A stretch of 64,000 nucleotides of DNA from Spartobacteria bacterium LR76 (GTDB lineage Bacteria > Verrucomicrobiota > Verrucomicrobiia > Chthoniobacterales > Terrimicrobiaceae), in the NCBI GenBank assembly GCA_003054655.1, contig QAYZ01000013.1:1-64000 (forward strand). The letters are read 5' to 3'. Positions 9,809 through 24,275 of this stretch are shown here, in pieces. The notes beneath the pieces are model-generated. The model was not told where the DNA came from. It made no database searches and saw only the letters and a program-made list of their open reading frames with translations. The translations under genes were made by a program, and so were the position numbers. Numbering within the stretch: position 1 is the stretch's first letter; each line of letters opens with the position of its first letter.

Positions 9809-11888
9809 CAAGCAGGAACGCCGCGTGCCGCCCGGGCAGGTGGAAACCATCGAAGCCTTCGAAAGTACTGATTGAGCGCCCCGGTTGATCGGCCAACGTC
9901 ACCGTATACGGAGTATGGTTGATCATCAGGATTCCATTCTCGAAGGCTACGGTCTCAATGCCTCTGCGGCGGCGCTCAGCGATCCCGACCTCGATCATGA
10001 CACGCTCCACCGGCGTGCGCGCAATGATCGTGAGCGGATAATGATTTTCCTTTTTGTACTCCCGAGCCACGGGCAGATGTTCCCTGCTGGCATAGGCAGC
10101 GCCATAATAGAAACCAAACGAATGTACCGCACCTCGGCCAGGATGATGAATAGTGTAAACCCCGGCACCGTCGCAAAGATAGCGTGCCTGGATGTCACCG
10201 GAATCGTAAGCGGCAAACTCGGGCGATCCCGTAACGACCTTTTCCTCCCAGACGAAGGAATCCGCGCAATGAGGAAGAGCTTCCATGCCGAAAGCGTAAT
10301 GAACCGCCTCGGCCATGCCATGCAAGAGCAGGCCCCCGCCCTCCACATACTCGCGAAGCCTCTTTTCAAACAACTCATCCCGCATCGCCCAGTAGTGAGG
10401 ATCTGCCGATACAACCACGCAGTCGTATTCGGCGAGCGTCTCAGCGTGTGACGGATGAATAATGTCGGGATTCAGGCCCAGATCGGCGAGTTGCCGGTAC
10501 CACCCGAGAAAATCGTCGCGAAAGGCGTTGTATTGCCTCGTATCCGTGGGCTGCGCGGAAAGCGTGTAAGAAGCAAATGGGTAGACCATCGCCACCCTGC
10601 GCGTTTTGAGCCTCCGACCCGCAACACCCCGGACCTCCGAGAACCAATCCAGCGCCCCGCGCAATGAGTCCCTCTCAGGCACATCCCATTTGCCAAAGTT
10701 TCCGCCGTCGTCCAACCCGTTGTAGCCATAGAAATACAAATCCGTAGCCCCGGCGCCAAAGGCAGACGCGATGACCTCCGCCGGGCTGCAGACGGCATAG
10801 ATGTCATTGGCCATGTAGCGACCGAGGAAAAGAGAACCCACGAAATCCCGATCCCTGGCCGCACTCCGAAGCATCGCCATCTCACAGGGGACAACATACG
10901 GCTCGATATAGCCGTGGTTGTCGATCGGCATCGTGATAAACGAGGGCGAGTCCAAGATCGCGCCGAGATCCCAAAGATCCCAGCCGCGATTCTGAATATG
11001 CACATAATCGCTGAAAAACACCTTCCATTGCGAAAGGGCCGCATAGAGGTAAAAGCGCGCGTCCTCCTCCCGAAGTCGACCTGCCACTCGCGCAAAATAG
11101 TCGCGCATGACGCGGCGCTTGTAAGCCTGGTTATCGGCGTACTTCCGCACCGCAGCCGTGCGTCCCTCGTAGTCAGCGAAGGCTGGTACATGCCGGTGGG
11201 CTTCCAGCGGATCGGCCGGGTTTGTCCAGTAATCCTCGGCTCCCAGTTGATCGAGCGAGACAAATGCCGATCCGTACCGGTCATTCACTTCCTCAAGCGA
11301 ATAGCGGGAGCGCAGCCATGCCAGATAATGTTCGCGTCCATCATCATCGAAGGACGGGGAAAAGATCGGGCTGTGATAAAAGTAGAAGGGCAGTCGCTCC
11401 CGCCCGGCCTCATCCGTGACGGAGGCAGCGGCATCTCCGGCAATGAAGCGGTAAAGCTCCAGACAGTGTCTCACATGCTCCTCGGCCTGAGCGACGGACC
11501 AGTGACGGTAACCGCGATAGGGTTGCTGCCAGTAATCCACCGGTTGATCGACGAACTCCGGAGGGTGATCGTAGATTTCGGGATAGAGGTTATCCCCAAT
11601 GGCAAACAACGCCAGAAAGGACACTCCCATGCCATTGTCGCGACAGCAGCGGGTGATGAAATTCTGCATCGCAACGTATTGACTTTCCTCCCTTGTGCGG
11701 AAGAAATGCGTAAAGTCGCTCCATAGCTTGGAATCGAGCACGATCGAATTGAACCCCAGTCTCCGCATGTCCTCGATGCCGCTTTTCACGGCCTCCCTGC
11801 TCGAGAAATAGGGCTCAAAGAAGTTGCCAAACCATGCCATGAACGCAGGTCGGGGTCCGGAAACGCATCGTTCAGTGCTATAAAGCAT
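9804..11888 (-). CDS. GH42-like beta-galactosidase family protein (cytoplasmic)
   Basis: 694 residues with no signal peptide. The first 400 residues look like a TIM barrel (MRRLGFNSIVLDSKLW, then YLAWLRSRYSLEEVNDRYGS, a phrase typical of GH42). Residues about 430-560 resemble the GH42 trimerisation / glutamine-amidotransferase-like domain (RRVAMVYPFASYTL; EYVEGGGLLLHG). A C-terminal beta domain ends FHLPGRHAAFLLG. The enzyme probably hydrolyses a beta-galactoside or related glycoside in the cytoplasm; I could not pin both catalytic glutamates. AAGGA stands about 9 bases before the ATG at 11888, which supports this start. It lies 49 bases downstream of the FAD oxidoreductase in the same direction, so the two probably form an operon next to the AraC gene. 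Confidence 0.7.
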   Translation of the reverse strand: MLYSTERCVSGPRPAFMAWFGNFFEPYFSSREAVKSGIEDMRRLGFNSIVLDSKLWSDFTHFFRTREESQYVAMQNFITRCCRDNGMGVSFLALFAIGDNLYPEIYDHPPEFVDQPVDYWQQPYRGYRHWSVAQAEEHVRHCLELYRFIAGDAAASVTDEAGRERLPFYFYHSPIFSPSFDDDGREHYLAWLRSRYSLEEVNDRYGSAFVSLDQLGAEDYWTNPADPLEAHRHVPAFADYEGRTAAVRKYADNQAYKRRVMRDYFARVAGRLREEDARFYLYAALSQWKVFFSDYVHIQNRGWDLWDLGAILDSPSFITMPIDNHGYIEPYVVPCEMAMLRSAARDRDFVGSLFLGRYMANDIYAVCSPAEVIASAFGAGATDLYFYGYNGLDDGGNFGKWDVPERDSLRGALDWFSEVRGVAGRRLKTRRVAMVYPFASYTLSAQPTDTRQYNAFRDDFLGWYRQLADLGLNPDIIHPSHAETLAEYDCVVVSADPHYWAMRDELFEKRLREYVEGGGLLLHGMAEAVHYAFGMEALPHCADSFVWEEKVVTGSPEFAAYDSGDIQARYLCDGAGVYTIHHPGRGAVHSFGFYYGAAYASREHLPVAREYKKENHYPLTIIARTPVERVMIEVGIAERRRRGIETVAFENGILMINHTPYTVTLADQPGRSISTFEGFDGFHLPGRHAAFLLG

Positions 11889-11937
11889 AGGGGATATCCT
11901 TCCTTGGCTGTGAGAAGCCTTCTTGGAAAGAGAAATT

Positions 11938-13473
11938 TTACGGGTGTACCAGGGCCTCGGCCTCGGTGATGCCCACGATGAACGCGGTCGCCTCCGGCGG
12001 ACGGCTCAACACCTGACCGGCCTCGAGCAAGGCTGCCTGCAGATCAGGGTACGGCACTTGCTGAACGGAGACCCCCAGGTCCAGGGCGATCGACGCTGCC
12101 ACCGAGGCGGACTGGCCGAGAGTCATAAACACCGGTTCCATGCGGATCGAACCAAATGCGATGTGCGATGCCGAAATACAAAATGGGGCCAGAAGATTTG
12201 CGCACTCAGCCTCGCGCGGCACGATGGCGCGGTACGAGATCGGATAGGGCAATATCCCGCCCACCTGGACATCCCCTTCATTGACTACCACGCCGTTTCG
12301 CACCATGCGGCGACAGTGATGCGAGTCCATGCCGTAGGCCGCCATGCCGATGGAGTCCTCGGCGACGGAATGGCCGCGGCAGTTGTGCTCAGTCATCACG
12401 TAATCGCCAAGCATCCGCCGGGCCTCGCGAACGTAGAGGGCGTGGGGCCATCCTCCGCTTTCCGGAAATTCATCTGCACACAGCCCCCAGGAACTCATCG
12501 GTTCCCGGATTGCCGCGGGCACTTCGGAATCATTTGCGAGACACCACATGAGTCCCTGCTGCCAGCAGACGTGCCGTTGGAAAATGTGCTCTCGCTCTAC
12601 GTAGCTGCCAGCGGCCCAGCCGTAGTTCTGCCCAATGAAATCCGTGGACACAGCACCGTGATTGTTCGTATCGGTCTTGCCATTCCGGATCTCGTCAAAC
12701 TTCTGAAACGCCTCGTTCCACCCCGTAGCCAGAAAGCGCTTCAAGAGAATGTACCAGGATTCATCATACCCTTCGGGCTGAGGGAAAGGCATCCGGATGT
12801 CGTCCCGTTGGGTCAGGCACATCCGAAAGTTGTAGGTCTGTACTCTATTATCTCCAGCCCCTTGCGCAAACGACGGATCAGGATCGATGCCAGGAAGAAG
12901 TCCGCTCGCTGGCACGCCCGGGATGATGTAGGGATCGACCGGGGTCTCAAACTGGTGACCGCTCTCGATCTGCGCGCCGTTGATAGTTTCATTGTAGCGG
13001 GAATTTCCCTCTCGCCCGATAAAATGCGAGACGCCCGCCAGTGCGAGCAGATCGCCCTCATAAGATGCGTCAATGAACATCGCGGCCCTCACCGCGATCC
13101 CGCTTACGGTGCGAATCGCCACGATACGGTTTCCCTCCTTGGAAACCTCATCGATGAACTGGCGCTTGAACACGCGGACATTTGCCTCAAGCAGCCATTG
13201 CTCAAAAGTCTCCTCCGCGACATGCGGCTCAAACCTCCACTCCTCAAGGGTGCCGTATCGCCTGCCTACCCGGCGGTAAAACTCGCGGGAAAGGCCACCG
13301 ATCACGTGCTTGTTGCCGACATCCGTCATGCCCAGCCCTCCCGCGGTCATTCCTCCGAGATGGGCGCTCGGCTCGAGCAGCACGACGCTCAGCCCCCGAT
13401 TTGCGGCGTCAAGAGCGGCAATGACGCCACCAGACACACCACCATAGACACAAATATCCGCCGAGAGGCTCAT
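11938..13473 (-). CDS. FAD-dependent oxidoreductase (FAD_oxidored family)
   Basis: About 511 residues. The N-terminus SADICVYGGVSGGVIAALDA is a Rossmann dinucleotide-binding motif, with the downstream acid as LLEPSAHLGGMTAGGLG. Further family features are AAMFIDASYEGDLLALAGV and the late PIAYR-like stretch YPISYRAIVPREAECANLL. These proteins occur beside polysaccharide lyases and glycosidases; the substrate is usually unknown, though oxidation of a sugar or polyol is plausible. No signal peptide is evident. I chose the ATG at 13473 because it gives the short leader usual before the FAD motif. An in-frame ATG at 13560 would add 29 residues. The gene diverges from the AraC regulator at 13608, which probably controls it. 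Confidence 0.8.
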   Translation of the reverse strand: MSLSADICVYGGVSGGVIAALDAANRGLSVVLLEPSAHLGGMTAGGLGMTDVGNKHVIGGLSREFYRRVGRRYGTLEEWRFEPHVAEETFEQWLLEANVRVFKRQFIDEVSKEGNRIVAIRTVSGIAVRAAMFIDASYEGDLLALAGVSHFIGREGNSRYNETINGAQIESGHQFETPVDPYIIPGVPASGLLPGIDPDPSFAQGAGDNRVQTYNFRMCLTQRDDIRMPFPQPEGYDESWYILLKRFLATGWNEAFQKFDEIRNGKTDTNNHGAVSTDFIGQNYGWAAGSYVEREHIFQRHVCWQQGLMWCLANDSEVPAAIREPMSSWGLCADEFPESGGWPHALYVREARRMLGDYVMTEHNCRGHSVAEDSIGMAAYGMDSHHCRRMVRNGVVVNEGDVQVGGILPYPISYRAIVPREAECANLLAPFCISASHIAFGSIRMEPVFMTLGQSASVAASIALDLGVSVQQVPYPDLQAALLEAGQVLSRPPEATAFIVGITEAEALVHP

Positions 13474-13607
13474 CACCTTAAAAGGCGCGGGAAGAAAATA
13501 ACGGGGAACCAGTTTCACTACAGTGATCGAATTCTCCCCTGCAGTCAGAAAACTGGCCATTTCATAAGCTTGCCTTAGTTATATATTTAGTTATCTCTTT
13601 TTGAGTT

Positions 13608-14495
13608 ATGGATTTGCTCTCTCGTCACTGGCAAAGCCCGCTATACCGCTGGTCCAGCCTTCGCACCGAACTGCTTTGGATTTACGAGGGACCCATCGCG
13701 GCTGGCTCGACCAGTGAGCGACAGGATCATAGCCTCGGGTATTGGGTCTGGCTGCTCCGCCGGGGGACCGTGCGTCTCGAAATGGAGGGAAAGACGTGGC
13801 AGGCCAATGCGGGTCAGTGGATGATTTCCCCGCAAGGAAAGACTCTCCAGGAGTTCTCTTCCGACGCCCGCATCCTTTCCGTCCACTTTAGGTGCCAGTG
13901 GCCTACAGGGAACAACCTTTTCTCCGGGCGCGACGCCGTAGTTCTAGATGCCAGCCAGTTTCCCAAGCTGGAGAAAAGCGCCACCGCACTCACCCGCCTC
14001 GTCCACCGGCATTTTCCCAAGGTGCGGCTGGAACTCACGGAGCAGCAGATCGACTACCCGGTTTTTCTGCGGTTCGAACAGCGTTTCCAGCAATGGCTCA
14101 TTGACTTTCACCATGCCATGACCCAGATGGGGCGCGCCCTGGCCCATGCGGGGCTAAGTGACGAACGTCTGATGAGAGCCGCGCATCTGCTGCACGAAAG
14201 CCCTCTCTCTGAGCCCTTTCCAGGCTTGCAGCTCCAGCGTGAGACCGGCCTCGGCCGCGCACATCTCGACCGGCTGTACTGGAAGGAATTTGGCATTACC
14301 ACACGGGAATATTGGGAGCGGCTGCGTCAGGATGTCGCCACGCGCAAACTGGAATCCACCGGACTTTCCATCAAGGAGATCGGTTACGAGCTCGGCTTCA
14401 AGCAGGCATCCCATTTCACCAAGTGGTTCTTCAATCGCCTAGGGAAAACCCCCAAGGCTTACCGGGAGGAATCTCCCACCAACCGGGCGTACTGA
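13608..14495 (+). CDS. AraC-family transcriptional regulator
   Basis: 295 residues. An N-terminal cupin-like sensor domain contains the phrase WVWLLRRGTVRLEMEG followed by GQWMISPQGK. The C-terminal double helix-turn-helix runs from about residue 205 to 290, with LGRAHLDRLYWKEFGITTREY in the first half and SIKEIGYELGFKQASHFTKW in the second, close to the AraC signature. It should bind DNA in response to a sugar ligand. It diverges from the FAD oxidoreductase and GH42-like genes, its most likely targets. The start ATG at 13608 lies 4 bases after the TTATCTCTTTTTGA motif (13591-13604), so that motif overlaps the translation start region. It converges closely with the Verru_Chthon run (17-base gap). 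Confidence 0.9.
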   Translation: MDLLSRHWQSPLYRWSSLRTELLWIYEGPIAAGSTSERQDHSLGYWVWLLRRGTVRLEMEGKTWQANAGQWMISPQGKTLQEFSSDARILSVHFRCQWPTGNNLFSGRDAVVLDASQFPKLEKSATALTRLVHRHFPKVRLELTEQQIDYPVFLRFEQRFQQWLIDFHHAMTQMGRALAHAGLSDERLMRAAHLLHESPLSEPFPGLQLQRETGLGRAHLDRLYWKEFGITTREYWERLRQDVATRKLESTGLSIKEIGYELGFKQASHFTKWFFNRLGKTPKAYREESPTNRAY

Positions 14496-14512
14496 GCCGA
14501 TCGTCTGTCATT

Positions 14513-15028
14513 TCACTGGACAGACCAGTTCTTTATCTCAATCACACAATCGCCAAGGTAGGGAGGTACAGAGAAGAAAATTATCACGCTTTTGATAGGA
14601 GTATTGTCAAAGCTCTCTCCAGAATCCGACGCCGCAGCCGCAAACTCGACCAAGTAGTTTGTGAACGCCGGTCCCTCATTTGGAAGAGTCTGCCTGATTT
14701 TGACACCGGTCTCCAGCTCGCCTCCAGCCGCGAGCTCGCCAACTTGAGTCTGGCTGAAATCAAAGCTGACCGACTCGGCCTTGACCGGTTTTTCAAAAGT
14801 GTAGGTAATCACAGCATGCCAAAGATACGAATCATCGTTGCGGCAGGATATCTTTATGCCTCCATCGGTGTTTTCTATCACCGGTTTCTTGAGGCCAAAG
14901 ATGTTCAAGCGTTTGTCCCCGTACTTGAGCGGCATGACGATCTTTTCACTCGCAGTCTGGGCATTGACAGCCGCCATTGACCCGAGTCCAAGGCCAGCGA
15001 GGACAATCAGTGGAATTATATGTTTCAT
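14513..15028 (-). CDS. Small secreted protein, function unknown
   Basis: 171 residues. The start at 15028 is set by a clear signal peptide, KHIIPLIVLAGLGLGSMAAV, cleaved near NAQ. The mature part is predicted all-beta and looks like a carbohydrate-binding-type sandwich (WHAVITYTFEKPVKAESVSF; VIEIKNWSV at the end). I recognise no family. It is the last gene of the leftward run that starts with the Verru_Chthon cassette and lies 14 bases after the lipoprotein gene, so it should be cotranscribed. Its role may be a periplasmic or surface accessory to the pseudopilin-like complex, which is inference from position alone. Confidence 0.65.
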   Translation of the reverse strand: MKHIIPLIVLAGLGLGSMAAVNAQTASEKIVMPLKYGDKRLNIFGLKKPVIENTDGGIKISCRNDDSYLWHAVITYTFEKPVKAESVSFDFSQTQVGELAAGGELETGVKIRQTLPNEGPAFTNYLVEFAAAASDSGESFDNTPIKSVIIFFSVPPYLGDCVIEIKNWSVQ

Positions 15029-15042
15029 TTTTTGAGAGACAG

Positions 15043-15717
15043 CTATCGCCCGTAGCTCTTGCGCGGCACCAGAGCTTCCCGGCATCTTTCCAAAGCTGCG
15101 GCGAATTCAGAATCCGGAGCGTAAGCGCGATCAGGCAGGGGCAGATCGAAGGCAAATACTCCGGCGGCGCCGCCACCGACCTTCAATGCAACTGGCCGAT
15201 TGGTTTGGTTGTCGATCCAGGCTTGAAAGACAATCTTCTCTCCTCCGACCAACATCTGTTCAAAAACATAGTGACGGCAGGATCTGCCGCCAAAGGTCTC
15301 CATCCCAAGAAATGTATCCCTACTCACCCACTGAAATGCCGCTGCGTCGTACCGTTGACCATCGAAATAGCCGCTCCGGAATGCGTTGGCCCTCTCGCCA
15401 TCCATCCTGAAGACAACCAACCCAGCCCGGGCTGGCCACCATATCTCCGCCTTGGAACCATTGGCGTAGTTCACAATATCATGCCTCCCGTCGGCCATCC
15501 GGACGATTTCGATTTTTGCAACCTGGCCAGCCACAGTTTTCTCCTTCGCACTGTCTGCTCGTTGAGTCGCGGCCCCTCCCCGGTCCTCGCCAAAAGTGAT
15601 CGTCCAGGCAGCATCTCCCGAGGGAAAGGATACCTCATGCGTGGTTGGTTCCTGCGCGCAAAGCGTACAGCCGAGCAAGAGCGCTGCTACAACGGCACCG
15701 AAAAATACTCTATTCAT
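15043..15717 (-). CDS. Lipoprotein of unknown function downstream of Verru_Chthon cassette
   Basis: 224 residues. The start at 15717 gives a lipoprotein signal (GAVVAALLLGC, Cys about 16), so the product should be anchored in a membrane. The frame runs open further upstream, but that part lies inside the cassette A gene and has no protein character. The mature protein has alternating beta strands with phrases such as GKAEIWWPARAGLVVFRMDG-like text (KAEIWWPARAGLVVFR) and RSCRHYVFEQMLVGG. It loosely recalls outer-membrane lipoprotein folds that bind hydrophobic or extended ligands, but I cannot assign a family. The gene overlaps the end of the cassette A gene by 8 bases, so translational coupling is likely. 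Confidence 0.7.
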   Translation of the reverse strand: MNRVFFGAVVAALLLGCTLCAQEPTTHEVSFPSGDAAWTITFGEDRGGAATQRADSAKEKTVAGQVAKIEIVRMADGRHDIVNYANGSKAEIWWPARAGLVVFRMDGERANAFRSGYFDGQRYDAAAFQWVSRDTFLGMETFGGRSCRHYVFEQMLVGGEKIVFQAWIDNQTNRPVALKVGGGAAGVFAFDLPLPDRAYAPDSEFAAALERCREALVPRKSYGR

Positions 15718-18700
15718 AGACTGGCTCCATTTGCGCGCTGACCAGTTTTCCCGTGATGCGATCGACCGAGACATGCAGCCAATACCTCCGCTCTCCTTCC
15801 ACGATGAAGTCCTGGAGGCCCGTTGCGTTGACCGCAAGGCGCCCGGACTGGGCAACCACGTCCACCAGGAGGTTCCAGGTCCGGATATCTGCGACATCTG
15901 CCAGAGCGCGAATCGGAGCCTCTCCATAGGACTTGTTGCGAAATGGCTGGTTCAGCGGGGTGTTGTTACCGTTGACGGAGGTGGCAGCTGTATTAAAAAC
16001 GCCGCCCAGGCGTGAAGATATGGCCGATGCGTCACGCAGCGCACCGTTCGTACGAATCTCGCCGACCGCCTCGCGCGCCAAAGCGGTTGCCTCATTGGCC
16101 GTAAGCGCACTGCCAGCGACATTATTGACCTGCTTTGTAACGTTTCGCAGGATGGCTTCCACCACGCTCTCAGTCGTTGAGTTGATGTTGACTTTTCCTG
16201 CCGCCACCATCGCCTGGTCGCTCACCGAGAAAAGGTCGAGCAAAGCCGCATCGGCGCTCTTGTCCGACCAGAGGTCCAGAGTCTTGAACGGTTGATCACG
16301 AAAGACGTAGCCTAACTCGCCCACGGATTGGAACGCTCGATTGAGTATGTACGGACGACGGCGGGCTTTGGAACCGGGCAGATAATCACTCGTGCCTGAT
16401 GTCAGCATGTATGTCCCCATGCCATCGCCAGACGTGTCTCCCGTGGCCGAGGCCCTGAAGGCGTCTCCGGGACGCGTGATATTATCCAGATCGGAATAAC
16501 GGAAGTCCGACGAGGCGATATTTTGCATCCAGGCATCAAACATACATTTGCCACCAGCCGCATTGACAAATCCCGCCGACGCCCGCGGCCATGCTGACGA
16601 GATCACCCCTCTTCCGATGTTATTCCCATCGTCATACGTGCTTTCGACGCTCGTCCGGATGGAGTAGCCCATTTGCCAGCTCGGAGTATTGGGTCGGACC
16701 ATGGACGAGCTTACAGAAAAGCGGTCTGTCCGCGGATCCACGCGGGCTATGATCGATCCCCAGTATCCCCCATACTTTGACCCTGTACTCCAGCCATTCT
16801 TGTTCATGGCGCGCACTCGGCTAATCACTGAGTACGGCAGCCATTGGCCATTTTTATCCTCATACTCCAGAGCAAAGGACAGATAGCCGCCCTCGGCCAG
16901 ATCGGGAATGACCGACACCGAATGCTGGGACGTACCTGTGGCTGGTATCGTGCGGGTAAGAGTGCCCAAATATACTCCCAGATACGGCGTCCGCTCGACA
17001 AAGGTATCGAACTGCGTCTTTGTCGCATTGGATTTGTAACGATTGTTCGCATCGTAGAGAGACACATTGACCGCATAGTCCAGCAGCGGATTGTTCATGG
17101 CGGAACCCGGAGAGCCGGCGGAGCAATAGCCGGTCAAAGGTACTGGCTTGCTAAAGAATGACAGAGGCGCCGTGGATGTCGGGGGAGGATTATTGAATCC
17201 GATCATACCCCGGGCGCTCGGTGCCGCCGGGTCGCGCCCGAAGCTCATCACCACGGGATTCGAACCCATCTGGCTCGTCGTTGGAACATTTGATCCGCTT
17301 TCATCCAGCCTGAGAGACGCCCCGCCGTAGGTCACGAAGCGCAACTGGCTCGGCGTATCCGGATAGGCAGCGGGGTCTGCCGTAGAGCTGTCGTGGGGAT
17401 TCCACACCTCGGGTTGCAGGAATACCCGCATGTCCCCTGGTCCCGTCGGTGCCGGAGTGGTACCACTCCCATGATCCGGCCAGTAGTGATTAATGAGGCC
17501 GACGCGAGTCAATACCGGAAGATTCTCAACCCCGAAGACATAGTTGTACAACTCGTCATCCGGGGAAATCTCCTGGTTGCTCATCTGGTATATCGCCGTG
17601 GGATAGTTATCGGCATCGGCTTGATCGATGATATTGGCTCCGATCTGGAGAATCTGCCGGTCCTTCTTGTTTGCGATCTGCTTGATATCGCCAAGCACTC
17701 CTTCCACGGGAACGGAAATATCCGTGGCCGAGGTCGGATCACCGGGATTTGTCCCGAGCGAACCCTCCATGATCCCCGCACGGAGAAGCTCGAAAAAGTC
17801 GGGGCCGCGTTTGAGATTCCGCACTTGATCGAGGCTCAGGATGCCATGCTCGTCTCCATGATCGTAGTCCCAGCGATGTTTGGCATCATTCCACTTGAGT
17901 CCGAAACATGTCTTGATGGCCCGCTCCCGATCACTGGCGGAAAGAGAGGGATCAAAGGCCGCCACGTTCGGTCCGTCATGTCCCAGCCATGCGAGTCTGG
18001 CGAGGGAGAAGGGGCGGCGCACGAGCGGAGAATTCGCCGTGACAGCTTCACTATCCCATGTGCCGTCGTCATGGTAGTGCCAGATCACTCCGTCAAATGC
18101 CTTAACGCCGGGCAGGGATCGATTATAACTCGCCGGGTCATCCGCCTTGTCACCATAGGGCGCGACACCACCGCTGTCGGTGGGGAGGTTGGTCGGGCCA
18201 TACGACGGCGCCGTAGCCGACCGTAACCGATGAACAAGGTTGGGCGCAGCGTTTGTCATTCCCGTCCGATTCAGGTAGCGGAGCAGGTCGCTACGGCTCA
18301 GGAAGGAATTATCACCGATCACTGTCCCGAGATGGCCTTCGGAACCGATCCGCGCTGCGGCTAGGATATCGCTCGCATTCGTCGAAGCCTTTCCGGTCGC
18401 CCATGCCTCAAAGAGCGCTTCACTGCTCCCGGTCTTTTTGTTTCTCCATGCGATCAGGGCATCGATTTGCTGGGTGGAAAGCCCCAGCGCCGTGAGATCT
18501 GCGTACGAGATGGACTCCTTCGTCTGGTACTTCGCTGCCGGAAAAGTGGAGGGGTAGCCCGCGACGTTCGCGTCCAGCAACCCTCCGATATTATATACCG
18601 TGTAGCTGAATCTCCCCACTACGGCATTCGTGGCCGAGGGAATATTGTTTCCTGCGCCCAAGGATTGAACGATCGTCCCGGAGCGCGTCAGATAGGTCCA

Positions 18701-19192
18701 CGTAGGCAGGTCCGCAGTGCCGAGTTGCGGACCATTCGCAAACCATTGCGACAGCATGCGCCCATTCCTCCCCTTGGCATCGATCCGCACGGTAGATCCG
18801 AAGGTCTTGCCATTGACGCCGGGATCAATCCTGTTGGTCGCTCCGGATATCTTCGCGATAACCATCGCTCCATTGGAGTCGGCTCCGGTCACGCCCACCT
18901 GGGCAGGAACCATGTTCGACGAGGCCAGGGGGCGGTAGACGCCGTTCGTGGCGGGATTGGAGTAGTCAATGATTTCCTGCCGGATCTCTCCGACCACGAC
19001 ATCCATTGCCATGCGGGCCAGCATGTCGGACTTGATTTGATTCGTGCTGGTGAAGGAAACCTGACGATTCAGCAAAGCACGGGAGAAAAACGCGAGGACG
19101 ATGACTGTGATCAGGACAATCGCCGCCATCGCGATGACCAGGGCGAACCCTCTCCCGCCCATCCCCGCAGTTCTGGGAATCACTCTCTTCAT
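15710..19192 (-). CDS. Verru_Chthon cassette protein A (GspK-like giant pseudopilin)
   Basis: 1160 residues. The start at 19192 gives an ATGA overlap with the C gene. The N-terminus is RGFALVIAMAAIVLITVIVL, a prepilin-like membrane helix that lacks the usual Glu at position 5, as GspK does. Near the C-terminus GKVNINSTTESVVEAILRN resembles the GspK phrase around NINTA. Near residue 240, YNIGGLLDANVA followed by a helical segment LGLSTQQIDALIAWRNKKTG recalls the GspK helical domain. GspK is usually near 300 residues, so a large insertion is present here. The family is known by name only, with no known function. I infer a tip subunit of a pseudopilus complex made with C, B and D. Confidence 0.85.
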   Translation of the reverse strand: MKRVIPRTAGMGGRGFALVIAMAAIVLITVIVLAFFSRALLNRQVSFTSTNQIKSDMLARMAMDVVVGEIRQEIIDYSNPATNGVYRPLASSNMVPAQVGVTGADSNGAMVIAKISGATNRIDPGVNGKTFGSTVRIDAKGRNGRMLSQWFANGPQLGTADLPTWTYLTRSGTIVQSLGAGNNIPSATNAVVGRFSYTVYNIGGLLDANVAGYPSTFPAAKYQTKESISYADLTALGLSTQQIDALIAWRNKKTGSSEALFEAWATGKASTNASDILAAARIGSEGHLGTVIGDNSFLSRSDLLRYLNRTGMTNAAPNLVHRLRSATAPSYGPTNLPTDSGGVAPYGDKADDPASYNRSLPGVKAFDGVIWHYHDDGTWDSEAVTANSPLVRRPFSLARLAWLGHDGPNVAAFDPSLSASDRERAIKTCFGLKWNDAKHRWDYDHGDEHGILSLDQVRNLKRGPDFFELLRAGIMEGSLGTNPGDPTSATDISVPVEGVLGDIKQIANKKDRQILQIGANIIDQADADNYPTAIYQMSNQEISPDDELYNYVFGVENLPVLTRVGLINHYWPDHGSGTTPAPTGPGDMRVFLQPEVWNPHDSSTADPAAYPDTPSQLRFVTYGGASLRLDESGSNVPTTSQMGSNPVVMSFGRDPAAPSARGMIGFNNPPPTSTAPLSFFSKPVPLTGYCSAGSPGSAMNNPLLDYAVNVSLYDANNRYKSNATKTQFDTFVERTPYLGVYLGTLTRTIPATGTSQHSVSVIPDLAEGGYLSFALEYEDKNGQWLPYSVISRVRAMNKNGWSTGSKYGGYWGSIIARVDPRTDRFSVSSSMVRPNTPSWQMGYSIRTSVESTYDDGNNIGRGVISSAWPRASAGFVNAAGGKCMFDAWMQNIASSDFRYSDLDNITRPGDAFRASATGDTSGDGMGTYMLTSGTSDYLPGSKARRRPYILNRAFQSVGELGYVFRDQPFKTLDLWSDKSADAALLDLFSVSDQAMVAAGKVNINSTTESVVEAILRNVTKQVNNVAGSALTANEATALAREAVGEIRTNGALRDASAISSRLGGVFNTAATSVNGNNTPLNQPFRNKSYGEAPIRALADVADIRTWNLLVDVVAQSGRLAVNATGLQDFIVEGERRYWLHVSVDRITGKLVSAQMEPVYE

Positions 19193-20109
19193 TCTTTTAT
19201 CAGCCCGTACGGGTTGATCGGAAATGCTCTCTGGAAAACGCGCACCGACTGACGCGCAAAGAGGGGCACTCCCGAAGGCAATCCGCCGACGTTTTCTGCA
19301 ATCGGAGACCACACCGCCACGGGATACTGCCCAGTCTGGGGAACCGGAAAACTGGTCGCCAAGGCTGTCACCTCGGAGGCTTTCAGCCGCTTGACGCCAT
19401 CGGGATCGATCGCGACCACGCCGACAATGAGACTGCTAACACGACTGAGATCAATCGCCGCCGAGGGATTCTTGTCAGAGTCCAGCCGGACAGGCGGAGA
19501 ATATACCACCTGGCCCCAAGCCAGGAGCAATGTACCATCGGACAAAAGCACACTCTCGCCACTGGGATAGAGTTGGTACCCGACAACCACCCGTATCACA
19601 GCGGGAGCCAGCACATCAAAGTCTCCGGGATTCAGAGTCACCCCGATATTGGCCAGCGATACAGGCAGCCCATTGGTCTGGTAGCCTGTCACACTCGCTG
19701 CACTCGTCCCCTGCCATGCGATCGGAACAGCGCCCCGCAGCAGACATGGCGTGGGCGTATCGGTCGTGCCATTTATCTGATAGCCAACGAGAGAGTATCC
19801 ACGGTTATTTGTCCCGCTGAGTCCGGCGGACATCACTCCCGAGACGAACACCAATCCGTAAGGCGGCGCAGCTCCGAATGAACTCGTTGATTGAAAATCG
19901 ATATCGGGTCTGCGAACCATGGCCGCCAGATCGATGCCCATGCGATCAAAGGCCAGCCTGGCCTGCGCCGCCGCATCGATGCCTGCATTGCTCATGCGAG
20001 ACGCACTGGAGGTGGCGGTAATGATCTGCACGATCAGCAGCCCGACGATGGCCAGGATCGCCACCCCGACCAGGATCTCGATCAATGTGAAGGCCCGGTG
20101 TCGCGTCAT
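19189..20109 (-). CDS. Verru_Chthon cassette protein C (GspJ-like pseudopilin)
   Basis: 306 residues. The ATG at 20109 overlaps the B stop as ATGA. The prepilin motif is HRAFTLIEILVGVAILAIVG near the N-terminus, with Glu at position 5 after the predicted cleavage site, then a membrane helix and an amphipathic stretch ASSASRMSNAGIDAAAQAR. The beta-rich body ends SVRVFQRAFPINPYGLIKE. It should be processed by a prepilin peptidase and assembled in the inner membrane with its neighbours. The order after D and B, and the size, fit the minor pseudopilin GspJ. The longer frame upstream of 20109 lies in the B gene and is not coding. Confidence 0.85.
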   Translation of the reverse strand: MTRHRAFTLIEILVGVAILAIVGLLIVQIITATSSASRMSNAGIDAAAQARLAFDRMGIDLAAMVRRPDIDFQSTSSFGAAPPYGLVFVSGVMSAGLSGTNNRGYSLVGYQINGTTDTPTPCLLRGAVPIAWQGTSAASVTGYQTNGLPVSLANIGVTLNPGDFDVLAPAVIRVVVGYQLYPSGESVLLSDGTLLLAWGQVVYSPPVRLDSDKNPSAAIDLSRVSSLIVGVVAIDPDGVKRLKASEVTALATSFPVPQTGQYPVAVWSPIAENVGGLPSGVPLFARQSVRVFQRAFPINPYGLIKE

Positions 20110-20642
20110 GGTGCTGGAAACGATACCAAGGCCTCGACCGATCCCCTCACCTTGGCAGGATTGAAGACATCGGCCGCATTGGAGGTGTTCGTGGCTGGCC
20201 AATTCACCACGAGACGTGCCAGCATCGGCTTCACTCCTGAAGCCCCCGGCACCTCAAGATAGGAAACTGATGCCTGAAACCGCGGTCTCCCGCTCGATAG
20301 TGAAACCGGCATCTCCGCATCATTCACGCCCGTGGAGAAAAAGTCTCCCGCCTGGATCGCCGGATCGAAGGTCACTCCGTTGGACGTAGCGCGATACGGC
20401 AAAGGGAGCCCGAAAAGCGACGATTTTCCGCCGTTCAGGCTGGAATGCGTGTTTCGCAGGTCAGCTTCCAGCATCGTCAACATCGAGGCAGCCCGGGTTT
20501 CCTCGACGGAAACCTGGTTGCTCTTGAGGCCGACCCCGAGCAACCCCACGACAGAAATGATAACGAATGCGAGAATGCCAACAGCGATCGCAACCTCAAC
20601 GAGGCTGAATGCGCGCGCACGGATGGAGATGTCTCGGACCAC
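20106..20642 (-). CDS. Verru_Chthon cassette protein B (GspI-like pseudopilin)
   Basis: 178 residues, the smallest of the four cassette proteins. The N-terminus reads RARAFSLVEVAIAVGILAFV, a clear prepilin signal with Glu at position 5. A short body contains SMLTMLEADLRNTHSS and ends with a beta region. The start appears to be the GTG at 20642; no ATG in this frame lies between the D stop and the motif. The size and second position in the cassette fit GspI, which nucleates the pseudopilus tip with GspJ and GspK. It is coupled to C by an ATGA overlap. Confidence 0.8.
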   Translation of the reverse strand: MVRDISIRARAFSLVEVAIAVGILAFVIISVVGLLGVGLKSNQVSVEETRAASMLTMLEADLRNTHSSLNGGKSSLFGLPLPYRATSNGVTFDPAIQAGDFFSTGVNDAEMPVSLSSGRPRFQASVSYLEVPGASGVKPMLARLVVNWPATNTSNAADVFNPAKVRGSVEALVSFPAP

Positions 20643-20691
20643 GAAGATTCAGGAGAAAGAATGGACTCACATGCAACAGCCTGGCTGTCAC

Positions 20692-21399
20692 CTAAAGTGC
20701 CACCTCGCCATCCCGGAGAACGCGAATCGAACCGTTGATCCCGGAAAGCCGAAGGATGAACGGATTCTTACCCATGGCGGATGACGCGTTGCTGCCAGCT
20801 GGTTGATCGATGGCGATTTTAATATAGCGAGCCGGTTCCTCGAACGAAACTCTCGCCTCCCCTATCGGAGAAAACTGAATCACTCCCGTGAAATCCGTCG
20901 GGCCGAGACCTGAGATGGAGCGCTTGAGGGGCGACATGACCGCTCCCAGCACATTGGAGCCGAACGGAGTGACATCATTGCGTGTATCGATCGGCTGACT
21001 GCCCTGGAGGGAATCGAAAATGCGCAGGTTTTGCAGCACGAGAGGCCGACTGAGAGCGGGCCATGCACTCGTATCGGTCATATCTCCCGATGTGGAACCA
21101 TTCGCGGAAAATATCGGTTGGGCCACCAGAACGGGAAGCACCTGACCATTTGCAGCCGGAGCATTCCCCAGCAGGATGCGCACGTAGGTGCGGTTGGCCA
21201 TGGCATAGGCACGAGCCATCTCGAGAGTGCTGGAGAGATCCGCTACAGCTTTGTTCACCGTGCTGCCGCCACGGATCGACTGAAGAGCAGGTACCGAGAC
21301 AGCACTCAAGGTAACGATAATCGCCATCACGGTAAGCAGCTCGATGAGCGAAAATGCCTCGCATCGGAACCGCGAAGAACGTTGAGGGGGATAACTCAT
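20692..21399 (-). CDS. Verru_Chthon cassette protein D (GspH-like pseudopilin)
   Basis: 235 residues from the ATG at 21399; an alternative start at 21447 would add 16 residues. The prepilin motif is CEAFSLIELLTVMAIIVTLS, followed by the typical helix SIRGGSTVNKAVADLSSTLE and then ARAYAMANRTYVRI, a phrase often seen in GspH-type proteins. The body is beta-rich and ends INGSIRVLRDGEVAL. It is the first cassette gene. An A/T-rich upstream segment (about 21455-21490) with TTATCTAATTTCAA may hold the promoter. A terminator at 21534-21555 separates it from the PEP-CTERM repeat gene, so the cassette probably has its own transcript. Confidence 0.85.
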   Translation of the reverse strand: MSYPPQRSSRFRCEAFSLIELLTVMAIIVTLSAVSVPALQSIRGGSTVNKAVADLSSTLEMARAYAMANRTYVRILLGNAPAANGQVLPVLVAQPIFSANGSTSGDMTDTSAWPALSRPLVLQNLRIFDSLQGSQPIDTRNDVTPFGSNVLGAVMSPLKRSISGLGPTDFTGVIQFSPIGEARVSFEEPARYIKIAIDQPAGSNASSAMGKNPFILRLSGINGSIRVLRDGEVAL

Positions 21400-21533
21400 T
21401 CGAAGTATGTACAGAGTCGCCTGCCGAGGGGAAAAGCGCAAGTTCACGGTTTAGCTAACATTGCATTTTACGTTATCTAATTTCAATATGAAATCCACTT
21501 TAGTACCGAGTCTTTTCCCCTAAAAAGGCAAAA

Positions 21534-21555
21534 CGCCGCACCTTTCGATGCGGCG
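21534..21555 (-). terminator. Rho-independent terminator of the PEP-CTERM repeat gene
   Basis: CGCCGCA (21534-21540) and TGCGGCG (21549-21555) form a perfect 7-bp stem with an 8-base loop. On the minus strand the stem is followed by TTTTGCCTTTTT. It lies 27 bases past the stop of the leftward gene ending at 21582. Confidence 0.85.
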
Positions 21556-21581
21556 TCTACAGACCTGATCAGAGACGCTCC

Positions 21582-24275
21582 TCATGCCCTCGCTACACGC
21601 CTGCGGAAGACGGTTAGAAACGCCAGGCCGAGGCCAACTAGCCCCCACGCTCCTGGCTCAGGAACTGCGGCCACGACCAGATCGCCCGTAGCTTCGGTAA
21701 AGGTGAAATCCTGTCCACCCGCAAACGATTTCCAGACACCGGAACCCACCGAGGTCTCCGCCCATGATCCCGTGTAGAATCCGCCGGTAAAAGCCAAGGA
21801 GTCAAAGCCACCAAGATCATAACCTGTCGTAAAGTCAAAGAGGTTGTAAGTGGCGCTGGCGATCGCCGTAGTCATCGTGAACCTCAAGACACCATCGTAG
21901 GTAAGAAACTGTGATGCCCCGACATTGATTGCATCATAACCGCCAAGCACCCCACGGCTCGTCCCACTGATCTCCAGCGAGGTCAATGCCGTATTGCCGC
22001 TCAAAGTGAGAGCATTGGTAAAGGTAATAAGGCCCTCAGAGTTTCCCGGCGAGAGCACTCCGGTAACCGTGGTCACACCGCCGACAGTGCCCACACCGCC
22101 GAGCGTACCAGACACCGAAACAGCCGCTGCGACATTTGTCGAGCCGTTAACCTTCAACGTCGCACCTGCCGCGACATCGATGGCCCGGGTGTTGGCCAGA
22201 CTCCCGGCAATGACAAGCGTACCGGCGTTTACAGCGGTATCGCCGGTGTAGGTATTCGTGTTTGCAAGCACCACCGTACCCGAGCCAGCCTTGGCCAGGC
22301 TGCCCCTCTGGGCGGCCAAGTTTGTAGCTGCATAGGTTTCGCTCACCACACCGGAAACTGTGAGCGTGTTGGAGCCGGTGACCTCGATCGTCCCGGTACT
22401 CGTCAGGACGATACCGCGATCATTCGTTCCTGCGCCTCCATTATTCAGACCAAAGGTCGACGTGGCCTGTAGCGTGCCATTATTCAGATTTACCGATGCG
22501 CCCGTCGCCTGAGCTCCGAGATTGGCGTTCGAACTGACGCTCAATGTACCTTCATTGACAAAGGTTGCGCCAGTATACGTATTCAACCCGCCCAATGTCA
22601 AAATGCCTGCGCCTGTTTTGGTCAGCGCATTGGTTCCACTGGCACCGATCACGGAATTGATGACCAGCGAGTCAGAGACCGAATCTGTACGCACCACCAG
22701 TTCAACCCCGGTATTACCCCGAATCGTACCGCCGCTGATCGTGGTGGCACCTCCTCCTGCCCGCAGCAACCCGCCACTAGCCAATGCGAGGGTGGCGTTG
22801 CTGGCGAGCCCCAGATCCACCGCACCAGCCCCGTCAAATTTGATGGTATTGACTGTGACATTTGCCTGATTGGTAATCGAGGAACTTACGAGGTTGTGGC
22901 TGGATGCGGTCAAGGAACCAGAGGCGTTCACAAAACCTGCGTCCGAACCGTAGACCGCCGCTCGAATGTATGATCCGCTGGCGTTCATGTAGCCGTAGTT
23001 TGCACCATTCACGAAAACACCCTGGTTAACAAATCCCGCGCTCACACCTGTAAGGTTCATACTGTTATCTGTACCGACCGTACCGTCTGAGTAAACGAAA
23101 TTGGCCGTGGCACCCACCGTCCGGGCGGCCAGAGAGCTAAAGGTCAGCGAACTGCTGGTCGCGGCACCCTTGGTGGACTCAACGATATTGTTGCCCCTGG
23201 AGAAGGTCAATGTGCCAAGAGACTGCGTCTTTACGCCGGAGGCATTCGTGTTGTCGTACCAGAATCTCGCCCCTTGCATGTTCACCGTCCCGGTGGAAGC
23301 CAGAGATCCTGTGCTGCCATCAAGTCTCAAATTTCCACCCGCAATCACGGTGCCTCCGGTATAGGTATTGGCTCCCGCCAGCGTTTGCGTTCCGGTCCCG
23401 CTCTTGATCAAACCAATCGTGCTGGTCGCATTGCCATTCTGGATAATCCCGCTGAAACTATAATTCCCATTCCCCGCCAACGCCGTCCAACGATTACCAT
23501 TACCCGTTCCACGGGTATACAATCCCCCGCCACTCGCTCCATCATTGATGCCAGCGACGGTAAAGAGGTTGCTCGAATTTCCACCATCGCCACGACTGAA
23601 CGTGGCCCCGGCATTTACGTATAGAGTATTGGACGCACTCAATGCAGTAACCGGATCCGCATTGAAAGAAGCGACCGCCAAGGTTCCTGAGTTGACCCGG
23701 ACTGCCCCAGAAAATGTATTGGTGCCTTTCAATGTCACAGCGCCGGATCCCGTCGAGTTAATGTCGATCTCCGCAGATGCACCTGTGATGTTGCCGCTTA
23801 GCGTGAGCATGTTCGCCGAGGCGTTGTTGAAGACAAGATTACCGTTCATCTGTATCCCTGTCGTGATGGTATTTGCCCCGCTTGACGATACCTGGTTGAT
23901 CTGCGCGGCGGAGCTGCCGTTGTCCAGGATCAGGACCGCCCCTCCGGAAGACGCCAGAAAATATGAACTCTTAGGAGTCGTCAAATCCGTGTCGCCGATA
24001 TTGAGAATTCCCAACGTTCGCGACGTGGAATCAATCGTGATAGTCCGGTCGGGAGAAATTTCACCGGTCAGATACCCCGTAGAACCCTGGCCATCTGCGA
24101 TGATGCCGTTAAGCCATTTAGAGGAATCGCTCCAGTTGCCATTTTCGTTTGAGATCCACGAACCGCTGTCGGCGCGGGTATTCGCTACCAGGCATGTGGC
24201 GATGAAGGCGATGATCGCAGTAACCCGGGCGCGATTCACGCGATTTAATTTCGGAGAATGAGAACCATGTTTCAT
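21582..24275 (-). CDS. PEP-CTERM surface protein with autotransporter-type beta-strand repeats
   Basis: 897 residues. A signal peptide (VTAIIAFIATCLVANTRA) leads into GSWISNENGNWSDSSKWLNG, a common opening for these proteins. At least four passenger repeats resemble one another: GAVTLKGTNTFSGAVRV, TQTLAGANTYTGGTVIAGG, ILTLGGLNTYTGATFVNEG and TVVLANTNTYTGDTAVNAG (roughly residues 175, 295, 565, 680). They predict a long beta-helix. The C-terminus is VPEPGAWGLVGLGLAFLTVF then RRR, a standard PEP-CTERM sorting signal read by an exosortase; no exosortase gene is in the window. The mature protein should be displayed on the surface or in the extracellular matrix. Its position directly upstream of the Verru_Chthon cassette suggests a shared role. 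Confidence 0.88.
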   Translation of the reverse strand: MKHGSHSPKLNRVNRARVTAIIAFIATCLVANTRADSGSWISNENGNWSDSSKWLNGIIADGQGSTGYLTGEISPDRTITIDSTSRTLGILNIGDTDLTTPKSSYFLASSGGAVLILDNGSSAAQINQVSSSGANTITTGIQMNGNLVFNNASANMLTLSGNITGASAEIDINSTGSGAVTLKGTNTFSGAVRVNSGTLAVASFNADPVTALSASNTLYVNAGATFSRGDGGNSSNLFTVAGINDGASGGGLYTRGTGNGNRWTALAGNGNYSFSGIIQNGNATSTIGLIKSGTGTQTLAGANTYTGGTVIAGGNLRLDGSTGSLASTGTVNMQGARFWYDNTNASGVKTQSLGTLTFSRGNNIVESTKGAATSSSLTFSSLAARTVGATANFVYSDGTVGTDNSMNLTGVSAGFVNQGVFVNGANYGYMNASGSYIRAAVYGSDAGFVNASGSLTASSHNLVSSSITNQANVTVNTIKFDGAGAVDLGLASNATLALASGGLLRAGGGATTISGGTIRGNTGVELVVRTDSVSDSLVINSVIGASGTNALTKTGAGILTLGGLNTYTGATFVNEGTLSVSSNANLGAQATGASVNLNNGTLQATSTFGLNNGGAGTNDRGIVLTSTGTIEVTGSNTLTVSGVVSETYAATNLAAQRGSLAKAGSGTVVLANTNTYTGDTAVNAGTLVIAGSLANTRAIDVAAGATLKVNGSTNVAAAVSVSGTLGGVGTVGGVTTVTGVLSPGNSEGLITFTNALTLSGNTALTSLEISGTSRGVLGGYDAINVGASQFLTYDGVLRFTMTTAIASATYNLFDFTTGYDLGGFDSLAFTGGFYTGSWAETSVGSGVWKSFAGGQDFTFTEATGDLVVAAVPEPGAWGLVGLGLAFLTVFRRRVARA

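What the first reader, a model, noticed from the sequence alone, without database searches (positions are those of the whole stretch)
14513..24275. Verru_Chthon cassette reads as a minor pseudopilin tip (GspH-I-J-K-like) coupled to a lipoprotein and a PEP-CTERM repeat protein
Seen: proteins D, B and C have prepilin signals with Glu5, while A has the same type of helix without Glu5, the rule for GspK. A also has GKVNINSTTESVVEAILRN, like the NINTA region of GspK. Gene order D-B-C-A and sizes (235, 178, 306, 1160) parallel GspH-I-J-K, with A greatly enlarged. ATGA overlaps, an 8-base overlap with a lipoprotein gene and a 14-base gap to a small secreted protein suggest a single six-gene transcript. 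Known: the Verru_Chthon families are named but uncharacterised. Inference: this is a dedicated pseudopilus tip or adhesin/secretion device linked to surface display of the adjacent PEP-CTERM beta-helix protein.
Basis: partly seen in the sequence, partly recalled or inferred. Interest (0 to 1): 0.78.

Follow-up and report, generated by a model that had tools for sequence, protein, structure and literature searches.

The report
Giant-tipped pilus cassette, one of twenty
Four genes encode a pilus tip whose last subunit (a GspK-type minor pilin) carries about 650 extra residues; the genome holds about twenty such tip sets but one prepilin peptidase, so one pilus machine may wear many tips, perhaps one per carbohydrate.

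Summary
A's AlphaFold model (pTM 0.86) matches XcpX/GspK first (Z 10.2-10.7; first non-GspK row 5.6). Its C-terminal domain matches canonical GspK without the N-helix (P 2e-9). Glu5 is present in D, B and C and absent in A across relatives (60/62, 60/62, 63/66, 0/81).

Four points need correcting. (1) All four proteins score far below the Verru_Chthon cut-offs: this is a sister type (order D-B-C-A-E). (2) The 'lipoprotein' E has a LolA/RseB-like fold and its family lacks a lipobox (about 58 of 62). (3) A predicted terminator separates the PEP-CTERM gene from D, and such neighbours are uncommon (15 of 144). (4) The likely machine is not the canonical T2SS but the Amuc_1098-1101-type T4P: D-B-C-A sits inside T4P core operons in several genomes, and PilM is present in 48/48 A-bearing genomes of the class.

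The genome has about 20 dispersed cassettes, T2SS and T4P cores and one prepilin peptidase. Best reading: exchangeable, possibly glycan-specific T4P tips. Tip identity and machine are well supported; glycan specificity is inference.

The parts
20692..21399 (-). D: GspH-like minor pilin (prepilin signal, Glu5), 235 aa
   Evidence: weak hits to TIGR02596 (23 bits, below cut-off) and gspH (20.9 bits); first gene of the conserved D-B-C-A order
20106..20642 (-). B: GspI-like minor pilin (GTG start, Glu5), 178 aa
19189..20109 (-). C: GspJ-like minor pilin (Glu5), 306 aa; ATGA overlaps with B and A
   Evidence: (gspJ 5e-4; TIGR02599 34 bits)
15710..19192 (-). A: giant GspK-type tip pilin, 1160 aa, Ile at +5; pilin helix 16-76, C-terminal pilin strands 1105-1157, GspK-like helical domain about 941-1100, about 600-650 extra residues between
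16643..17512 (-). Variable beta-rich insert of A (residues about 561-850): 19% mean pairwise identity against 56% for the C-terminal pilin strands; 210-438 residues long among relatives; candidate specificity domain
15043..15717 (-).
14513..15028 (-). F: small secreted protein, found only here and in the sister species; last gene of the probable transcript, not a conserved cassette part
21531..21558 (-). Predicted intrinsic terminator between the PEP-CTERM gene and D (12-pair stem, T-rich tail; z -3.9 for the 81-nt stretch); the stem is kept in L048, the T tail less so
21448..21480 (-). Block upstream of D that is almost identical in the sister species (TTAGATAACGTAAAATGCAATGTTAGCTAAACC), candidate promoter or operator
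21582..24275 (-). PATR beta-repeat protein with PEP-CTERM signal, 897 aa; syntenic in the sister species but not an obligate partner

Best explanation
D-B-C-A encodes a complete priming and tip complex (H-I-J-K type minor pilins) for a type IV filament. A is the capping K subunit: its pilin helix and C-terminal strands sit in the filament, and the extra 600-650 residues stand at the distal end. Shown: the composition, the order and the GspK fold of A. Strongly indicated: in Verrucomicrobiota this set belongs to the Amuc_1098-1101-type T4P machine (PilB, PilT, PilC, PilM, Amuc_1100, Amuc_1099, PilQ). In this genome about 20 dispersed copies coexist with one such machine, one canonical T2SS that has its own G-H-I-J-K, and one prepilin peptidase. 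Inferred: the copies are exchangeable tips induced with local carbohydrate genes, each capturing a different glycan for retraction through PilQ into the periplasm. Inferred: E, a LolA-fold periplasmic protein made with A, is its dedicated periplasmic chaperone or carrier.
For: A model pTM 0.86; the top four structural matches are XcpX/GspK with Z 10.2-10.7 over 228-266 residues, first non-GspK row 5.6. The A C-terminus matches canonical GspK without the helix: P 2e-9, score 66.9 against a shuffled maximum of 25.5 and controls of 12-18. Glu5 rule. Order D-B-C-A in 48/71, E next in 54/73. Cassette directly after PilC/GspF and major pilins (with PilB and PilT where the contig shows them) in L196, L205, L221-L224, L226; A followed, after two small genes, by PilM-Amuc_1100-Amuc_1099-PilQ in L141/L230. 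A-like ORFs in 48 of 76 genomes of the class: all 48 have PilM, 13 lack detectable canonical GspK; Fisher P 2.5e-7 for PilM, 0.007 for GspK. About 20 cassettes in the own genome with a single peptidase and Amuc_1098/1099/1100-family proteins over cut-off. LacI genes within 10 kb of 12/20 cassettes, expected 3.5, P 2e-5; sugar regulators and glycoside hydrolases among neighbours. Parts co-diverge (Mantel r 0.65-0.80, P 0.001) and the beta insert is the most variable region. E fold. Literature: mul genes of Akkermansia, including the PilM/Amuc_1100 locus, are needed for internal accumulation of mucin products (PMC13174399, PMC12418764); interchangeable tips are known in Myxococcus Kil pili (PMC12075869).
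Against: No experiment and no predicted complex. The GspK fold is classically a T2SS subunit, and a complete T2SS core is present in this genome, so T2SS use is not excluded. The window's own cassette is not next to T4P core genes. LacI enrichment is carried by type-1 cassettes; type 2 alone is 4/9 within 10 kb (P 0.054), and type-2 loci elsewhere show no significant LacI enrichment. No carbohydrate-binding fold was identified in the insert. Most A-like calls in the class scan rest on an N-terminal match, although nearly all lie in ORFs of about 600 aa or more.
Confidence: 0.6

Rival explanations
1. Alternative pseudopilus tips of the canonical T2SS: each cassette replaces GspH-I-J-K and recruits its own set of exoenzymes for secretion, such as neighbouring hydrolases or PEP-CTERM proteins.
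For: A has the GspK fold, including the helical domain. A complete canonical G-H-I-J-K-L-M-D-E-F cluster is in the genome. Secreted hydrolases lie nearby.
Against: The T2SS has its own H-I-J-K. 13 of 48 A-bearing genomes lack detectable canonical GspK, among them G045 with many A-like genes, while all have PilM. Where cassettes lie next to a machine, it includes PilC/PilB/PilT or PilM-Amuc_1100 genes.
Confidence: 0.22
2. A surface-display device dedicated to the adjacent PEP-CTERM beta-repeat protein.
For: Same strand and adjacent; synteny kept in the sister species. PEP-CTERM neighbours are mildly enriched (15/144 against 12/318, P 0.009).
Against: Most relatives have no PEP-CTERM neighbour. 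A predicted terminator separates the two transcripts. PEP-CTERM proteins are expected to use exosortase, not a pilus (general knowledge, not tested here).
Confidence: 0.05
3. Adhesive or sensory tips for attachment to particles or other cells rather than for glycan import.
For: Tip pilins with variable distal domains are often adhesins (PMC12075869). MUL2-type loci have been proposed to serve attachment to particles (PMC13174399).
Against: Many copies lie among sugar regulators and hydrolases. PilT is encoded beside the cassette in L196, L222 and L223, which suits retraction and uptake, although adhesion also uses retraction.
Confidence: 0.13

Closest known systems
T2SS tip GspH-I-J-K (XcpU-V-W-X; 3CI0, 5VTM)
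   Same: Gene order H-I-J-K, Glu5 in three subunits and not in K, GspK pilin plus helical-domain fold of A
   Different: A is about four times longer; the set is found with T4P genes in other genomes and in about 20 copies here; E follows
Verru_Chthon cassettes (TIGR02596/02598/02599/02600)
   Same: Same four kinds of proteins; A profiles related (hhalign 98%, E 1e-13); 11 true members in this genome
   Different: Order B-C-D-A or B-C-A-D, no E; the window cassette fails all four cut-offs, A similarity mainly in the N-terminal third
Amuc_1098-1102 (MUL2) type IV pilus of Akkermansia
   Same: The same core machine is encoded in this genome (Amuc_1098/1099/1100 families over cut-off) and follows a D-B-C-A cassette in L141/L230
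   Different: The tip subunits of that pilus are not described in the papers read here
Myxococcus Kil (Tad) pilus with four interchangeable Tips (PMC12075869)
   Same: Several unlinked minor-pilin clusters with large variable end domains serving one filament
   Different: Tad/TadEFG-type pilins, predation function, four copies rather than about twenty
LolA/LolB/RseB-MucB superfamily
   Same: Predicted fold of E (Z about 10)
   Different: Sequence about 5-10% identical; no lipoprotein-carrier function shown

Membership tests
TIGR02600 Verru_Chthon_A (and TIGR02596/98/99) | Score over the curated cut-off | tested here: not met
   A 25.8/332.3, D 23/70, B 32.7/51.4, C 34/256.5 bits
TIGR02600 Verru_Chthon_A (and TIGR02596/98/99) | Full-length homology to true members of the same genome | tested here: inconclusive
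   blastp matches only N-terminal pieces; profile-profile 98% over residues about 7-327; C-terminal part 72%
GspK (T2SS minor pseudopilin K) superfamily | Prepilin helix without Glu5 | tested here: met
   0 of 81 A proteins have Glu5
GspK (T2SS minor pseudopilin K) superfamily | GspK fold: pilin domain with inserted helical domain | tested here: met
   Z 10.2-10.7 to 9a1f_T, 5vtm_X, 3ci0_K, 6utu_C, aligned range reaching residue 1160; Foldseek alone gave E 0.6-2.2
GspK (T2SS minor pseudopilin K) superfamily | Sequence homology outside the helix | tested here: met
   hhalign P 2e-9 for residues 940-1160 against canonical GspK without the helix; shuffles and unrelated controls far lower
GspK (T2SS minor pseudopilin K) superfamily | Score over the curated GspK/T2SSK models | tested here: not met
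   No hit for the window A to NF037980 or PF03934; a paralogue scores 14.8 bits as a protein against a cut-off of 24.2
T2SS tip operon | H-I-J-K order, within or near a T2SS core | tested here: not met
   The order is met; the locus is not linked to a T2SS core. The canonical T2SS elsewhere has its own H-I-J-K
T4P priming/tip complex (Amuc_1098-1101-type machine) | Encoded with the T4P core in some genomes and always co-occurring with it | tested here: met
   L196, L205, L221-L224, L226, L141/L230; PilM in 48/48 A-bearing genomes
T4P priming/tip complex (Amuc_1098-1101-type machine) | Presence at the pilus tip; required for pilus assembly | not testable with these tools
   needs genetics, microscopy or crosslinking
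Bacterial lipoprotein (E) | Conserved lipobox Cys | tested here: not met
   4 of 62 family members; absent in the 71% orthologue
LolA/LolB/RseB fold (E) | Fold similarity | tested here: met
   LolA 8cgm Z 10.2, RseB 2p4b Z 10.0
LolA/LolB/RseB fold (E) | Lipid or lipoprotein binding | not testable with these tools
   needs binding assays

The most novel reading that the evidence does not exclude
One verrucomicrobial type IV pilus uses a library of about twenty exchangeable giant-K tips, each switched on with a local carbohydrate locus and each catching a different polysaccharide for retraction-driven uptake into the periplasm: a pilus-based counterpart of the SusC/D-like repertoire of Bacteroidota, with a LolA-fold helper for one tip class.
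Probability: 0.35. Interest if true: 0.88.

Novelty: new variant of a known kind. Interest (0 to 1): 0.68.

Why it matters
How Verrucomicrobiota recognise and import very different polysaccharides with a pilus-dependent system is open: mul genes of Akkermansia are needed for internal mucin accumulation (PMC12418764, PMC13174399), but no tip is described in the papers read here. This work gives a candidate tip (D-B-C-A), a fold for its giant subunit, its core machine and a set of about twenty variants in one genome. That makes 'one machine, many glycan-specific tips' directly testable, and it gives a physical setting for the much-studied Amuc_1100 protein. It also corrects the reading of the Verru_Chthon-like genes, which no paper in the searched library mentions.

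Tried and rejected
Sequence-only search of solved structures with the A and E profiles: no useful hit. Foldseek alone on A: best E 0.4, with XcpX at rank 4 (E 0.64) among unrelated pore-forming proteins; only the second alignment separated GspK clearly. Pfam T2SSK appeared to ring in one paralogue in the genome scan but is only 14.8 bits as a protein, so it is not used as evidence. The type-1 A compared directly with GspK without the helix is weak (0.6-13.6%), so its K identity rests on the type-2 link. LacI enrichment next to type-2 cassettes in other genomes is not significant (16/308 against 12/376, P 0.24). The idea that E is a lipoprotein was dropped, and so was F as a cassette part. Small secreted proteins after the giant A in G045/G048 are not recognisably related to E. 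The complex of D-B-C-A could not be predicted with the single-chain tool.
Full report
1. The observation. D, B and C have prepilin signals with Glu5; A has the helix with Ile at +5. The pattern is not chance: among 78 related loci from Verrucomicrobiota genomes the order D-B-C-A is kept in 48 of 71 testable cases and E follows A in 54 of 73. Glu5 is kept in 60/62 D, 60/62 B, 63/66 C and 0/81 A. The parts co-diverge (Mantel r 0.65-0.67 between A and B, C, D or E; 0.80 for B-C and 0.74 for C-D; P 0.001).

2. It is not a Verru_Chthon cassette by the curated criteria. All four proteins score far below the cut-offs and only over about 55-65 N-terminal residues. The genome (4.75 Mb; the window is C10:1-64000) holds 11 full-length TIGR02600 proteins and nine of the window type. 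The true members mostly have the order B-C-D-A or B-C-A-D; the window type has D-B-C-A, usually followed by E; a few copies of either type are incomplete. The two A families are related by profile comparison (98%, E 1e-13). Orthologous pairs with a sister genome (window-L048 86%, L013-L063 90%, L018-L060 94%, L023-L095 80%) show that the copies are old and stably kept.

3. A is an enlarged GspK. The AlphaFold model (81 sequences, mean pLDDT 78.9, pTM 0.86) has a 60-residue N-terminal helix and C-terminal pilin strands. VIA-align ranks XcpX/GspK first (9a1f_T Z 10.7, 266 residues; 5vtm_X 10.5, 228; 3ci0_K 10.2, 249; 6utu_C 10.2, 231); the next row, a minor pilin, has Z 5.6. VIA only re-aligns Foldseek's list, where XcpX stood at E 0.64, so this is a second look rather than an independent search. 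Sequence agrees: without the helix, residues 940-1160 of the A profile match canonical GspK proteins of the class with P 2e-9 (score 66.9; shuffled maximum 25.5; E, LacI, B, C, D controls 12-18). Shorter relatives of 700-1140 aa, flanked by D, B and C, fill the gap between 300-aa GspK and the 1160-aa A. The beta-rich insert 561-850 is the most variable part (19% identity, 210-438 residues) and the C-terminal strands the most conserved (56%).

4. The machine. The genome has one canonical T2SS cluster with its own G-H-I-J-K, one Amuc_1098-1101-type T4P cluster (Amuc_1100 302 bits, cut-off 180; Amuc_1099 278, cut-off 50; two Amuc_1098 secretins 862 and 870, cut-off 750) and one prepilin peptidase. 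In other genomes single cassettes sit in T4P core operons: after PilC/GspF and major pilins, with PilB and PilT where the contig shows them (L196, L205, L221-L224, L226), or before PilM-Amuc_1100-Amuc_1099-PilQ with two small genes between (L141/L230). L196 and L221-L223 are from one genus, so they are not independent. In 76 genomes of the class, 48 have an A-like match; all 48 have PilM and 13 lack detectable canonical GspK (Fisher P 2.5e-7 and 0.007). In 145 genomes of the phylum, all 102 with an A-like match have a prepilin peptidase and the six without peptidase have none (P 5e-4). Caveats: most of these A-like calls rest on the N-terminal region, canonical GspK was sought with one sequence, and related genomes are not independent in the Fisher tests.

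5. E, F and the PEP-CTERM gene. E (model pLDDT 86.3) has a LolA/LolB/RseB/ependymin-type fold (Z about 10) and is an ordinary secreted protein; a lipobox-like Cys occurs in 4/62. F occurs only in the window and L048 among the loci held here. Between the PEP-CTERM gene and D lies a predicted terminator hairpin (21558-21531; z -3.9 for the stretch), whose stem, though not its full T tail, is kept in L048, followed by a conserved block before D (21480-21448). PEP-CTERM neighbours are mildly enriched (15/144 against 12/318) but absent in most relatives.

6. Context. In this genome LacI genes lie within 10 kb of 12 of 20 A genes (3.5 expected, P 2e-5), mainly at type-1 cassettes. Pfam scans of direct neighbours of type-2 cassettes list sugar-type regulators (Peripla_BP_3/LacI, AraC, GntR) and GFO/IDH/MocA upstream, and GH38, GH42, GH2 and others downstream. 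Published work reports that mul genes of Akkermansia, including the PilM/Amuc_1100 locus, are needed for internal accumulation of mucin products, and that related marine lineages take up fucoidan (PMC13174399, PMC12418764). Exchangeable minor-pilin tips are shown for the Myxococcus Kil pilus (PMC12075869) and proposed for cyanobacterial T4P (PMC12288463).

7. Mechanism. Shown: composition, order, Glu5 rule, GspK fold of A (predicted model), LolA fold of E (predicted model), multiplicity, linkage to T4P genes in other genomes. Inferred: D, B and C prime a T4P filament and A caps it; the insert meets the substrate; local regulators choose which tip is made; retraction brings a bound glycan into the periplasm; E is a periplasmic helper of A. 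The last three steps have no direct evidence.

8. Verdict. A real, ancient and expanded minor-pilin tip system, not described in the searched library, and a new variant of a known kind.

Noticed in passing
L131 (G000 C9:612000-631900) 11479-16623: Two tandem Amuc_1098-family secretins (859 and 850 aa) in one T4P cluster.
   Followed up: partly
L130 (G000 C11:10000-29900): A third filament machine with its own secretin, ATPase-like gene, GspF-like gene, minor pilins and an 842-aa protein with a pilin N-terminus; not identified further.
   Followed up: no
L187 11330-12034, L188 3700-4458, L189 2709-3458, L191 10366-11115: In other families (G045, G048) the giant K-like gene is followed by a different family of 234-252 aa secreted proteins, not recognisably related to E by sequence.
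   Followed up: partly
L185 3807-7835, L186 3361-7413: Two genomes of one genus with many sampled species (possibly Akkermansia, not verified) carry a 1342-1350 aa K-like gene without D-B-C beside it and without detectable canonical GspK.
   Followed up: partly
G000 whole genome: 128 prepilin N-methylation signals (E up to 0.05) in one genome with one prepilin peptidase; many lie outside the cassettes fetched here.
   Followed up: no
L080 1388-13184: Two type-2 cassettes in tandem.
   Followed up: no
window 11938-14495: FAD-dependent oxidoreductase-like gene and a divergent AraC-type regulator next to the cassette, kept in the same arrangement in the sister species (L048).
   Followed up: partly
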